From contig NZ_LFME01000045.1 of the NCBI RefSeq assembly GCF_001043115.1, positions 1 to 32,394 on the forward strand: 32,394 bases of DNA, read 5' to 3'. This stretch comes from Xanthomonas sp. NCPPB 1128 (lineage in GTDB: Bacteria; Pseudomonadota; Gammaproteobacteria; Xanthomonadales; Xanthomonadaceae). The notes under the pieces are model-generated. The model made no database searches, had not been told where the DNA came from, and worked only from the letters and a program-made list of their open reading frames with translations. Positions 26,378-30,000 of this stretch are shown piece after piece (the stretch's first letter is position 1; the number at the start of each line of letters is the position of its first letter). The position numbers were made by a program, and so were the translations under genes.

Positions 26378-26931
26378 GCCTGCGCCGCCTCGCCGCCAGC
26401 CTGCCGTCCTGCCCGCCTCGGGCAGGACGGCCTGGCGCGGGGCGACGGCGGCCGCCAGACGCGGCGCTGACGCGCGGCACGATACCGCCGGCACAGCCCG
26501 GCCCCTCTGCCGGGTGCCGCATGACTGCCCGCCATGACGTCCGCGCGAACATTCGGCAAAGGCGCTAAAGCGCGGCCTGCAGCGGCCGCTAACCGGTGAC
26601 GACACCCCAGCGACCGACGGACCGCGCTGGATCCCCGTACCGGCCGCGTCGGCGTCCGCCACGCCCGCCAGGCGAGCCAAAGCAGATAGGCGGCACCGGC
26701 CACCGACAACCCGCGATGCAGCGCCGGCACCTGCGCCAGCAACGCCTGCAGGCCCAACAACGCCGCCAACGCGAACAGCGCGCAGCCCACCCCCATGCCC
26801 AGTGCCGCGGCGAACCCGGCCGCACGCGAACGTCCGGCGGCCAGCCGCGCCACCAGCAAGAAGCTCGCACCGGGGCTGATCGCCCCCAGCGTCAGCACGC
26901 CGGCGATCGTCAGCAGGCTTGCGCCGGTCAC
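26350..26931 (-). pseudogene. Truncated LysE/RhtB-type amino-acid exporter
   Basis: A GTG start overlaps the asnB stop in a GTGA sequence. The first about 95 residues are a clear LysE-family N terminus: LTLGAISPGASFLLV near 13-27, then AGFAAALGMGVGCALFALAAL and AGAAYLLWLAWRAWR. Past about 26645 the frame stays open to 26350 but becomes Arg/Pro-rich with no further membrane helices, and the LysE second half (with its NP motif) is not found in any frame. The gene was probably cut by a deletion at about 26640. The open remainder makes an annotated 193-residue ORF possible. An amino-acid exporter coupled to asparagine synthesis would have been logical. Confidence 0.7.
26403..26431 (+). terminator. 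Strong 12-bp hairpin after the beta-helix gene
   Basis: GCCGTCCTGCCC pairs perfectly with GGGCAGGACGGC around a GCCTC loop, 25 nt after the stop codon. It lacks a T-run, so it may protect the 3' end of the mRNA or terminate with help. It is symmetric and could also serve the opposite strand. Confidence 0.6.
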
Positions 26932-28619
26932 CCCAGCGCCTGCGCGTGCACCCCGGCCACCGCACGACCGGAGGGATCGGCCATCGCCGCGAAGCTGGCA
27001 TCCCAGGCGATCGCCGCCGGCGAGGAGCAGGCGATCGACTTGCCGCCGGGCACGGTCTCGGCCGCGGCCGGGGTCGGGAACACGCGCTCGAACAGGCTGC
27101 GGTAGTAATACGCTTCCTTGGTCTGCGGCGGATTCACCGGAAAGCGCTTGTCGGCCGCGGCCAGTTCGCGGTCGCTGACCTGCGCCTCGGCGTGCGCCTT
27201 CAGCCCGTCGATCCAGCCGTAGCCGACGCCGTCGCTGAACTGCTCTTTCTGCCGCCACAGGATCGACTCGGGCAGATAGCCTTCGAAGGCTTCGCGCAGC
27301 ACACCTTTTTCCATGCGCGCCGCGCCGCCACTGGCCTTGTCGATCATCTTGTACTGGGCATCCATGCGCATGGCCACGTCCAGGAACTCCACGTCCAGGA
27401 ACGGCACGCGCGGTTCCACGCCCCAGGCCATCATCGACTTGTTGGCGCGCAGGCAATCGTAGTTGTACAGGGCGTCGAGCTTGCGGATCAGTTCCTCGTG
27501 GAATTCGCGCGCGTTCGGCGCCTTGTGGAAGTACAGGTAGCCGCCGAAGATCTCGTCGCTGCCTTCGCCGGACAGCACCATCTTCACCCCCATCGCCTTG
27601 ATCCGCCGCGCCAGCAGGAACATCGGCGTGGAGGCGCGGATGGTGGTGACGTCGTAGGTCTCGATGTGCCGGATCACGTCCGGCAGCGCGTCCAGGCCTT
27701 CTTCGAAGGTGTATTCGAAACCGTGGTGCACGGTGCCCAGCGCCTCGGCGGCGATCGCCGCGGCGGCCAGATCCGGCGAGCCCTTCAGGCCGATCGCGAA
27801 CGAGTGCAGGCGCGGCCACCAGGCCTCTGCCTCGTCGTTCTCCTCGATGCGCTTGCGCGCGAAGCGCGCCGCCACCGCCGCCACCAGCGAGGAATCCAGC
27901 CCGCCGGACAGCAGCACGCCGTACGGCACGTCGGTCATCAGCTGCCGATGCACGGCGCGCTCGAAGGCCTCGCGCAGTTCCTGCTTGCTCACTTCCACGC
28001 CCTGCACCGCCGCGTAGTCGCGCCAGGGTTTGCGGTAGTACTGCACGAGCTCGCCGCTGGCACTGTCGTAGTAGTGGCCCGGCGGGAACTGGGCGACGTC
28101 GGCGCAACTGTCTGCCAGCGACTTCATCTCCGACGCCACCCGCAGCCGACCCTGCGCGTCATGGCCCCAATACAGCGGACACACGCCCATCGGATCGCGC
28201 GCGATCAGCACGCGGCCGGCGGCCTTGTCCCACAGTGCGAACGCGAAGATGCCGTTGAGTCGGTTCAGCAGCGCGTCCGGCGTGGTTTCGCGGTACAGCG
28301 CGTTGATCACCTCGCAATCCGAACCGGTCTGGAAGGCATAGGGCTGGGCGAGTTGCTTCTTCAGTTCGCGATGGTTGTAGATCTCGCCGTTGACCGCCAG
28401 CGCCAGTTGTCCATCCTCCGACAGCAGCGGCTGCGAACCACCGGCCGGGTCGACGATGGCCAGGCGCTCATGGACCAGGATCGCGCCGTCGTCGACATAC
28501 ACGCCGCTCCAGTCCGGGCCGCGGTGACGCTGCCGCTGCGAGCAGTCCAGCGCCTGCCGCCGCAATGCCTGCAGGTCGTCGCCCGGTTGCAGGCCGAAGA
28601 TGCCGAAGATCGAACACAT
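26928..28619 (-). CDS. asnB: Asparagine synthetase B (glutamine-hydrolysing)
   Basis: The 563-residue enzyme makes asparagine from aspartate, ATP and glutamine. The N-terminal glutaminase domain starts MCSIFG, with Cys2 as the nucleophile after Met removal, and includes RHRGPD, RLAIVD, NGEIYNH and GSDCEV. The synthetase domain has the ATP pyrophosphatase loop LLSGGLDSSL (about 243-252) and LSGEGSDEIFGGY. The start at 28619 is fixed by the Cys2 requirement and an AGGAG site; the Met six codons upstream would bury Cys2. The gene is preceded by an Asn-rich leader ORF and a terminator, so it is very probably controlled by asparaginyl-tRNA supply. Confidence 0.97.
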   Translation of the reverse strand: MCSIFGIFGLQPGDDLQALRRQALDCSQRQRHRGPDWSGVYVDDGAILVHERLAIVDPAGGSQPLLSEDGQLALAVNGEIYNHRELKKQLAQPYAFQTGSDCEVINALYRETTPDALLNRLNGIFAFALWDKAAGRVLIARDPMGVCPLYWGHDAQGRLRVASEMKSLADSCADVAQFPPGHYYDSASGELVQYYRKPWRDYAAVQGVEVSKQELREAFERAVHRQLMTDVPYGVLLSGGLDSSLVAAVAARFARKRIEENDEAEAWWPRLHSFAIGLKGSPDLAAAAIAAEALGTVHHGFEYTFEEGLDALPDVIRHIETYDVTTIRASTPMFLLARRIKAMGVKMVLSGEGSDEIFGGYLYFHKAPNAREFHEELIRKLDALYNYDCLRANKSMMAWGVEPRVPFLDVEFLDVAMRMDAQYKMIDKASGGAARMEKGVLREAFEGYLPESILWRQKEQFSDGVGYGWIDGLKAHAEAQVSDRELAAADKRFPVNPPQTKEAYYYRSLFERVFPTPAAAETVPGGKSIACSSPAAIAWDASFAAMADPSGRAVAGVHAQALG

Positions 28620-28662
28620 GGGAAAGCTCCTGATCATGGGGTGGTGTGCGCGAGGGGGGACG

Positions 28663-28793
28663 CACCAGACACAAAAAAACCCGCATCGGCCGATGCGGGT
28701 TTTCTGGTGGCTGGGCGTGGTGTTTCTGGTAGCGCCTAGTCGCAGACCCGCATCGGCCGCGCACGATTATTCGCCAGCGCATTATTGCGGCCG
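28663..28793 (-). promoter_or_regulatory. Asparagine-responsive transcription attenuator of asnB
   Basis: Four RNA segments can be read on the minus strand. Segment 1 (28793-28787, CGGCCGC) can pair with the start of segment 2 (28760-28754). Segment 2 (28759-28746, CGGCCGATGCGGGT) is perfectly complementary over 14 nt to segment 3 (28700-28687) and identical to segment 4 (28692-28679). Pairing 3:4 gives the terminator, pairing 2:3 the antiterminator. CACCAG (28709-28704) and CTGGTG (28668-28663) can extend the terminator base. Segment 1 ends directly before the first AAT AAT pair of the leader. A ribosome stalled there would cover segment 1 and free segment 2 (read-through); one that reaches the stop codon would cover or approach segment 2 and allow termination. 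Confidence 0.85.
28673..28703 (-). terminator. Intrinsic terminator of the asnB leader
   Basis: The perfect 20-bp palindrome CCCGCATCGGCCGATGCGGG (28680-28699) is followed on the minus strand by seven T residues (28679-28673) and preceded by four A residues that pair with them. It lies 36 nt after the leader stop and 53 nt before the asnB start. It also has TTTT on the plus-strand side, so it may act weakly in both directions. Confidence 0.92.
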
Positions 28794-28831
28794 TTGGCGT
28801 TGATCGAGCGGAGGACGGACAGCGAGGTCAT
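28736..28831 (-). CDS. Asparagine-rich leader peptide of asnB
   Basis: The 31-codon ORF (ATG at 28831, TAG at 28738-28736) has Asn at positions 11, 13, 16, 17, 21 and 22, that is 19 percent, where about 1 would be expected. Four of the six are AAT, in two adjacent pairs, in a genome that should prefer AAC. It begins MTSLSVLRSINANG and ends RPMRVCD. It sits 38 nt after the dapE stop and is followed by a terminator-antiterminator sequence and asnB, which makes it a regulatory leader peptide like TrpL or HisL. No Shine-Dalgarno sequence is present; a promoter directly abuts the ATG. The peptide itself is unlikely to have a function. Confidence 0.87.
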   Translation of the reverse strand: MTSLSVLRSINANGRNNALANNRARPMRVCD

Positions 28832-28837
28832 GCAGCG

Positions 28838-28866
28838 ACCGTAACCCGACGCGCGGGCCGACGCAA
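28838..28866 (-). promoter_or_regulatory. Promoter of the asnB leader
   Basis: TTGCGT (28866-28861), a 17-nt spacer and TACGGT (28843-28838) fit a sigma-70 promoter with a TAnnnT -10 box. Only 6 nt separate the -10 from the leader ATG, so the predicted transcript starts at or beside the ATG and is leaderless. The promoter lies between the dapE stop and the leader ORF. Confidence 0.55.
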
Positions 28867-28869
28867 CTG

Positions 28870-30000
28870 TTACCGCAGCAACCGTTCGATCAGGCGCAGG
28901 TACAACTCGGGCAGCGCTTCCAAGTCGGCCACGCGCACGTGCTCGTCGACCTGGTGGATGCTGGCGTTGACCGGGCCGACTTCGATGCACTGTGCGCCAA
29001 GCGGGGCGATGAAGCGCGCATCGGAGGTGCCGCCGCCGGTGCTCTCCTCCGGCGGCGCGCCGGCGACCTCGCCCAGCACCTCGCGCGCCACCCGGCGCAG
29101 CGTGCCTTCGGGGGTGTAGAACGGCTCGCCGCTGCGGTGCCAGCGCAGGCTGTAGTCCAGGCCATGGCGATCGAACAGCGCGGCGATCTCCGTTTCCAGC
29201 CGCGGCGCATCCCAGTGCGGGGTGTAGCGCAGGTTGAAGGCGACCTGCAGTTCGCCGGGGATCACATTGCTGGCGCCGGTACCGGCATGGATGTTGGAGA
29301 GTTGCAGACTGGTCGGCGGGAAGCTTTCGTAGCCGTCGTCCCAGTGCCGCGCGACCAAATCGGCCAGCGCCGGCGTGGCCAGGTGGATCGGGTTTCGCGC
29401 CTTGTGCGGATAGGCCACGTGGCCCTGCACACCGCGCACGACGAGCGTGCCCGAGAGGCTGCCACGGCGGCCGACCCGCAGCAGATCGCCGAGCCGTTCG
29501 GTGGACGAGGGTTCGCCGGTGATGCACCAGTCGATGCGTTCGCCGCGCTCGGCGAACAGCCGCGCCACTTGGCGCACGCCGTCGATCGCATCGCCTTCCT
29601 CGTCGCTGGTCAGCAGCACCGCCAGCGTGCCCGGGTGCTGCGGATGCGCGGCCACGAACCGCTCGGCGGCGACCACGAAGGCGGCCACGCTGCCCTTCAT
29701 GTCGGCGGCGCCGCGCCCGTACAGCACGCCGTCGCGGAGTTGCGGCGCGAACGGATCGCTGGCCCAGGCCTCGCGCGGCCCCGGCGGCACCACGTCGGTA
29801 TGCCCGAGCAGCGCCAGCACCGGACCGTCGCCGCCACGGTGGGTGGCCCACAGGTTGTCGACCTGGCCGCAGCGCAACCGCTCGATGGCGAAACCGGCGC
29901 GTTCCAGCCGCTGCGCGATCAGGTCCTGGCACCCGGCATCGTCAGGAGTGACCGACGGACGGGCGATCAGGTCGCAGGCGAGTTCAAGGACATCGGACAT
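28870..30000 (-). CDS. dapE: Succinyl-diaminopimelate desuccinylase
   Basis: The 376-residue cytoplasmic enzyme hydrolyses N-succinyl-LL-diaminopimelate in lysine and cell-wall precursor synthesis. Zinc and catalytic residues are in place: His67 in GHTDVVP, Asp100 in GRGAADMKG, Glu134-Glu135 in SDEEG, Glu163 in TGEPSS and a late His in [11 protein letters not shown]. The length equals that of typical DapE. Aspartate is the shared precursor of both the Dap and Asn pathways, which suits the asnB neighbour. The start has no good Shine-Dalgarno sequence. Confidence 0.97.

What the first reader, a model, noticed from the sequence alone, without database searches (positions are those of the whole stretch)
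28663..28831. Asparagine attenuator: an Asn-rich leader peptide and switchable terminator control asnB
A 31-codon leader ORF with six Asn codons (two AAT AAT pairs) is followed by a 20-bp perfect palindrome plus seven U, then asnB. A 14-nt stretch in the leader (28759-28746) is identical to the terminator's distal arm and so pairs with its proximal arm; a 7-nt segment (28793-28787) ending right before codon 16 (AAT) can mask it. Low Asn-tRNA should stall the ribosome at codons 16-17 or 21-22 and give read-through; ample Asn should give termination. Ribosome-mediated attenuation is classical for trp, his, leu, ilv, thr and phe operons; I know of none for asparagine synthetase.
Basis: partly seen in the sequence, partly recalled or inferred. 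Interest (0 to 1): 0.95.

Follow-up and report, generated by a model that had tools for sequence, protein, structure and literature searches.

The report
Asparagine attenuator upstream of asnB
A tiny asparagine-rich reading frame and an RNA switch in front of the asparagine synthetase gene appear to let Xanthomonas-like bacteria read their own asparagine supply through ribosome stalling; it is an old mechanism applied to an amino acid for which we found no earlier report, and it is conserved across many genera.

Summary

Comparison supports the interpretation. A strict test (short ORF with at least 4 Asn in 20 codons, terminator 10-50 nt past its stop) is met by 121 of 125 asnB loci from 19 genera of the window's family, 13 of 15 and 3 of 3 in two other families, 1 of 19 in four more, and 0 of 732 shuffles. 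Only Asn is enriched. Terminator and antiterminator helices covary. The last Asn codon lies 17 nt before the antiterminator core in 82 of 122 loci.

Two additions: a promoter-like site ends 6-7 nt before the leader ATG in 122 of 125 loci, so the leader mRNA is probably leaderless; and the window's genome has AsnRS but no GatB match, so Asn-tRNA charging should report free asparagine.

Ten library searches listed no asparagine attenuator. Expression was not testable.

The parts
28861..28866 (-). -35-like hexamer TTGCGT of the leader/asnB promoter
   Evidence: coordinates; TTG-starting hexamer with 17-18 nt spacer over the family
28838..28843 (-). -10-like hexamer TACGGT; its end lies 6 nt before the leader ATG, so the predicted transcript start is the A of ATG (28831)
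   Evidence: 6 or 7 nt in 122 of 125 loci
28736..28831 (-). Leader ORF, 31 codons, six Asn codons (11, 13, 16, 17, 21, 22)
   Evidence: Asn-rich ORF in relatives
28781..28786 (-). Control codons 16-17 (AAT AAT)
28766..28771 (-). Control codons 21-22 (AAT AAT), 20 and 17 nt before the antiterminator core GCGGG
28787..28793 (-).
28746..28759 (-). Segment 2: antiterminator strand CGGCCGATGCGGGT inside the leader ORF
28692..28705 (-). Segment 3: proximal arm of the terminator; pairs with segment 2 or segment 4
28674..28687 (-). Segment 4: distal arm of the terminator with most of the U tract (28679-28673)
28627..28631 (-). AGGAG, Shine-Dalgarno-like site of asnB
   Evidence: read by eye
26928..28619 (-). 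asnB, glutamine-hydrolysing asparagine synthase B, 563 aa

Best explanation
This is a ribosome-mediated transcription attenuator specific for asparagine. Transcription starts at or next to the leader AUG, so a ribosome loads on the 5' end and follows RNA polymerase. When Asn-tRNA(Asn) is scarce the ribosome stalls at the Asn codons; segment 2, just past its leading edge, pairs with segment 3 (antiterminator) and transcription continues into asnB. When Asn-tRNA is plentiful the ribosome runs on to the leader stop and covers segment 2; segments 3 and 4 form the terminator and transcription ends before asnB. Shown by sequence: leader ORF, Asn codons, promoter-like site and its position, terminator, antiterminator complementarity and spacing, kept over many genera. 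Inferred: translation of the leader, stalling, and regulated read-through.
For: Strict test (Asn-rich ORF plus terminator): 121 of 125 (family f1, AsnB about 82% or more identical), 2 of 3 distant f1, 13 of 15 f12, 3 of 3 f2, 0 of 732 shuffles. In 27 further f1 loci from other genera (one, g15, seen before), 11 pass strictly and 17 have at least 4 Asn per 20 codons. Asn is the only residue well above shuffles: mean 6.3 against 1.3, 5.4 sd; the next, Leu, 0.56 sd. Peptides differ greatly (NANGRNNALANN, NNNNRNNASLPRAGD, NNNNRANNNANRWRARA) but keep Asn runs. Segment 2:3 pairing exceeds permutation (0 of 5000 on 49 distinct triples; one per genus mean z 3.8), as does 3:4. Spacing: last Asn codon to GCGGG 17 nt in 82 of 122, GCGGG end to end of stop 11 nt in 80 of 122. 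With a ribosome placed at the last Asn codon, segment 2:3 forms (P over 0.5) before segment 4 exists in 110 of 122. Window: -36.5 kcal/mol with segment 2 free (antiterminator), -20.8 with it hidden (terminator). AsnRS present, GatB not found in the window's genome.
Against: No expression, toeprint or ribosome-profiling data. At equilibrium the terminator is often the preferred fold even with segment 2 free (terminator P over 0.5 in 91 of 122 for a stall at the last Asn codon, 67 of 122 one codon earlier; antiterminator 29 and 53), so the switch must be kinetic in those loci. In the window's genus the ribosome-free full transcript is predicted mostly as antiterminator (mean 0.84 over 20 loci), so an untranslated leader might read through, unlike trp. 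Parts are weak or missing in some loci: 8 of 125 not called by the terminator script, no perfect hairpin in L051, L075, L137, L140 and no clear segment 2 in L121. Families f7, f9, f5 and f10 mostly lack it (1 of 19). The stock promoter and terminator scans found nothing in 28500-29000. ORFs were chosen by highest Asn, so the frame count is biased; the shuffles are the control.
Confidence: 0.92

Rival explanations
1. The hairpin is just the terminator of the upstream gene dapE, and the ORF is chance.
For: In the window dapE lies directly upstream on the same strand and the hairpin is a strong intrinsic terminator.
Against: dapE was found in the 1.5 kb upstream of asnB in only 8 of 80 named loci, while 37 of those 80 have leader plus terminator. 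The leader has its own promoter-like site. Asn runs exceed shuffles.
Confidence: 0.02
2. The leader responds to ribosome slowing in general (antibiotic or other starvation), not specifically to asparagine.
For: Leaders are also rich in Arg and Ala; any stall upstream of segment 2 would expose it.
Against: Arg and Ala are near the level expected from composition (0.36 and 0.42 sd), Asn at 5.4 sd; the regulated gene makes asparagine; the last Asn codon sits at one distance from segment 2 in 82 of 122.
Confidence: 0.04
3. The leader is a small functional peptide or sRNA acting in trans, with attenuation secondary.
For: The Sinorhizobium trp attenuator RNA and peptide act in trans (PMC7298713, passages).
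Against: Apart from the Asn runs and the C-terminal end that is encoded by segment 2, the peptides differ between genera, and those of f12 share neither end with f1.
Confidence: 0.05
4. A T-box or metabolite riboswitch controls asnB here.
For: Asn T-boxes are known in Firmicutes (recalled).
Against: No Rfam family reached its gathering score in 28300-29100 (14 matches, all below).
Confidence: 0.01

Closest known systems
Amino-acid leader-peptide attenuators (trp, his, leu, ilv, thr, phe) of Proteobacteria (list recalled)
   Same: Leader ORF with cognate codons, terminator, competing antiterminator, biosynthetic gene downstream
   Different: Asparagine and asnB; no established 1:2 pause hairpin; probably leaderless
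Leaderless trpL of Sinorhizobium meliloti (PMC7298713, passages) and leaderless leader peptides of Streptomyces lividans (PMC8079986, passages)
   Same: Leader mRNA begins at the leader-peptide start codon, upstream of an amino-acid gene
   Different: Other amino acids (S. lividans: Leu, Trp, Ala, Ile, Met, Thr), distant taxa, different leader peptides
Asn T-boxes of Firmicutes (recalled)
   Same: Charging of tRNA-Asn decides termination upstream of asparagine genes
   Different: Direct RNA-tRNA binding without leader translation; no Rfam match here

Membership tests
Ribosome-mediated transcription attenuator (amino-acid leader peptide) | Short ORF upstream of a biosynthetic gene with codons for that gene's amino acid | tested here: met
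Ribosome-mediated transcription attenuator (amino-acid leader peptide) | Intrinsic terminator between leader ORF and gene | tested here: met
   (117 of 125 by script); the stock scan did not list it
Ribosome-mediated transcription attenuator (amino-acid leader peptide) | Competing antiterminator placed so that a stalled ribosome frees it and a ribosome at the stop covers it | tested here: met
   footprint assumed, not measured
Ribosome-mediated transcription attenuator (amino-acid leader peptide) | 1:2 pause/protector hairpin | tested here: inconclusive
   Leader upstream of the terminator folds like shuffles in the window (z -0.5); the named 7-nt arm is mostly limited to the window's genus; segment 2 is predicted paired with upstream sequence in 102 of 122, without a shuffle control
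Ribosome-mediated transcription attenuator (amino-acid leader peptide) | Read-through rises when the cognate charged tRNA is scarce | not testable with these tools
   needs reporter or RNA-seq
T-box leader (Rfam) | Match to the Rfam covariance model at its gathering score | tested here: not met
Rfam Thr_leader / Leu_leader | Match at the gathering score | tested here: not met
   22.9 of 55 bits and 20.3 of 50 bits

The most novel reading that the evidence does not exclude
An ancient asparagine-specific attenuator in which a leaderless start replaces the pause hairpin: RNA polymerase begins at the leader AUG, so a 70S ribosome engages at once and the two machines start in step without a 1:2 pause structure.
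Probability: 0.45. Interest if true: 0.75.

Novelty: new variant of a known kind. Interest (0 to 1): 0.66.

Why it matters
It would add asparagine to the amino acids read by ribosome-mediated attenuation, with about 150 natural variants on hand (strict positives). Because nearly all of those examined look leaderless, they offer a natural test of how polymerase and ribosome are kept in step; modelling holds that such synchrony is needed for sensitivity (PMC1183508, passages). It also predicts that asnB expression in Xanthomonas, Stenotrophomonas, Lysobacter and Rhodanobacter follows asparagine supply.

Tried and rejected
dapE-terminator reading: rejected. T-box/riboswitch: no Rfam match. The stock promoter scan found no site in 28500-29000; its threshold (9 of 12) is stricter than TTGCGT/TACGGT, which relatives brought out. 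The stock terminator scan also found none, probably because the stem takes up most of the T run; searches show the hairpin. The swapped-arm control by arm class was informative only for the ATC class (own 9.83, swapped 5.5-6.7); the other classes share the GCGGG core and did not separate. The class-level asnB search gave 4 of 229 genomes at E 1e-120, three of them the window's genome and two of its family, so other orders could not be sampled this way. All 36 named loci outside Lysobacterales-labelled and the three oddly labelled records failed the strict test; a Photobacterium ORF with 7 Asn per 20 codons (L261) has no matching terminator and is taken as chance. Lysobacterales-labelled loci that failed strictly: L207, L211, L228, L251 (3 to 5 Asn per 20 codons). 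Rows dropped: L127 and L135 (asnB start not recognised; L135 is the same place as L206, which passed), L284 (no start), L096 (masked bases) from the shuffle tests. In one search, 3 of 125 loci were skipped for want of an anchor, and some g16 loci with core GCGGC were anchored at another site, which lowers its counts. The tools structure prediction, fold search, build_rna_model and the count of structure pairs were not used.

Full report
OBSERVATION. On the minus strand, 28831-28736 is a 31-codon ORF with Asn at codons 11, 13, 16, 17, 21 and 22. 30 nt after its stop begins a hairpin with a 14-pair stem and a GGCC loop whose 3' side runs into seven T (28705-28673). asnB begins at 28619 (NF006949, 881.2 bits, cut-off 499). 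Segment 2 (28759-28746, CGGCCGATGCGGGT) equals the palindrome's centre and distal arm, so it can pair with the proximal arm.

CHANCE. In the window, seg2 to terminator folds with z = -3.9 and the terminator alone with z = -4.4. Relatives decide it. asnB was found in 20 of 20 genomes of the genus and in 269 of 297 of the family. I took 126 loci (19, 12, 95): the closest AsnB relatives (about 82% identity or more), not a random draw. 124 were oriented; with the window that makes 125. In 124 of 125 some short ORF has at least 4 Asn in 20 codons; shuffles of 124 regions reach this in 13 of 1240. Against shuffles Asn stands 5.4 sd above expectation; the next residue, Leu, 0.56. With a terminator 10-50 nt past the stop also required, 121 of 125 pass (misses L051, L075, L137, L140), against 0 of 732 shuffles.

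REACH. At order level 121 genomes were searched and 71 had asnB at E 1e-60, 53 of them outside the family. 40 upstream regions were read: f12 13 of 15 and f2 3 of 3 (all that had asnB), distant f1 2 of 3, f7 1 of 7 (18 had asnB), f9 0 of 10 (14 had it), f5 0 of 1, f10 0 of 1; the single f4 genome was not read. Of 28 further f1 genomes, one per genus (g15 was seen before), 27 could be read: 11 pass strictly and 17 have at least 4 Asn per 20 codons; all eight with AsnB at 64-65% identity lack it, as does L154 (64%). Of the best 80 named loci among 591 confirmed, 37 pass: Stenotrophomonas, Xanthomonas, Pseudoxanthomonas, Thermomonas, Luteimonas, Lysobacter, Arenimonas, Dyella, Rhodanobacter, Fulvimonas, Frateuria and unnamed Lysobacteraceae, Lysobacterales and Pseudomonadota. 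The 36 loci from Shewanella, Vibrio, Colwellia, Rheinheimera, Marinobacter and others fail. Contig lengths and positions link genus g17 to Xanthomonas euroxanthea, g16 to Pseudoxanthomonas, g29 to Stenotrophomonas and g51 to Thermomonas. The window's genus g1 has no name here; a Xanthomonas-like genus is inferred. That f12 is Rhodanobacteraceae is inferred from the similar peptides in named Rhodanobacter and Dyella.

ANATOMY. The peptides differ widely but keep Asn runs: NANGRNNALANNRARPMRVCD (window), NNNNRNNASLPRAGD (g15, g45), NNNNRANNNANRWRARA (Rhodanobacter). AAC and AAT are both used (429 and 382), so the residue rather than the base string is kept. In the window's genus AAT leads in the leader (65 of 97), while the window's asnB and dapE use AAC (14 of 16). 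Terminator arms change in step (A-U and G-C swaps). Segment 2:3 pairing beats permutation (49 distinct triples, 397 of 490 cells against a mean of 379.6, 0 of 5000; one sequence per genus, 18 genera, mean z 3.8). The core GCGGG starts 17 nt after the first base of the last Asn codon in 82 of 122 and ends 11 nt before the end of the stop codon in 80 of 122. With a footprint of about 12 nt past the A-site codon start (recalled) a stall at the Asn codons leaves the core free and a ribosome at the stop hides it. Folding under these boundaries gives segment 2:3 before segment 4 is made in 110 of 122, and the terminator in 122 of 122 when segment 2 is hidden, the latter by construction. In the window the antiterminator also wins at equilibrium (0.84 and 1.0). 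Over all loci the equilibrium favours the terminator in 91 of 122 (stall at the last Asn codon) or 67 of 122 (one codon earlier), so the switch must be kinetic there.

LEADERLESS START. A promoter-like pair, TTG-starting hexamer - 17 or 18 nt - TAnnnT (CAnnAT or similar in some genera), lies so that the -10 ends 6 nt (83) or 7 nt (39) before the leader ATG, 122 of 125 in all; scores reach the null's 95th percentile in 124 of 125. The score slightly favoured 6 nt, and the best in-frame start was chosen. Most f12, f2 and named loci listed show 6-7 nt too. The transcript should therefore begin at or beside the AUG. Leaderless leader peptides are reported for S. meliloti trpL (PMC7298713, passages) and several in S. 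lividans (PMC8079986, passages).

PHYSIOLOGY. The window's genome has AsnRS (626.5 bits, cut-off 342.6) and no GatB match (0 of 1; 12 of 14 control genomes ring), so Asn-tRNA should be made only from free asparagine. Besides asnB the Asn_synthase model matches short stretches in frames of 233 and 617 aa, so a second synthase-like protein is not excluded; asnA was not searched for.

CGGCCGC with its partner GCGGCCG occurs in 17 of 20 g1 loci and 9 of 102 others. The window's leader without the terminator folds like shuffles (z -0.5), and the ribosome-free full transcript of g1 is predicted mostly as antiterminator. A classical 1:2 hairpin is thus not established.

LITERATURE. Ten searches showed no title or abstract start on asparagine attenuation; three of the listings were capped. 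Two returned zero papers. PMC2965389 (passages) surveys attenuators and holds neither asparagine nor asnB. PMC3771888 (passages) names Xanthomonas AsnB2 only as one of the genes tested by qRT-PCR. The library is open-access only and the 2004 Vitreschak survey was not read, so priority is not proven.

VERDICT. A real and widely conserved asparagine attenuator by nearly all sequence tests available (the 1:2 hairpin is the exception); the regulation itself awaits experiment.

Noticed in passing
L180 (f7, g94) upstream of asnB: One of 7 loci read in a family otherwise without the leader has MFAIYNTINTTNNRLLRSAGSF, a CCCGCTT terminator and GCGGG in the leader; possibly an independent origin or transfer.
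   Followed up: partly
L154, L296-L303 (f1 genera with AsnB about 64-65% identical): These nine lack the leader; they may carry a different AsnB lineage.
   Followed up: partly
L162, L212, L217 (Rhodanobacter-type loci): The terminator lies 200 nt or more before asnB, so the stretch between may hold a further element.
   Followed up: no
window 28870-28861: The leader's -35-like hexamer starts 3 nt after the dapE stop codon, yet dapE was found upstream of asnB in only 8 of 80 named loci.
   Followed up: yes
L205, L209, L231: Records titled Holophagales, Rhodococcus and Deltaproteobacteria carry AsnB 76-83% identical to the window's, without the leader; mislabelled or transferred sequence is possible.
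   Followed up: no
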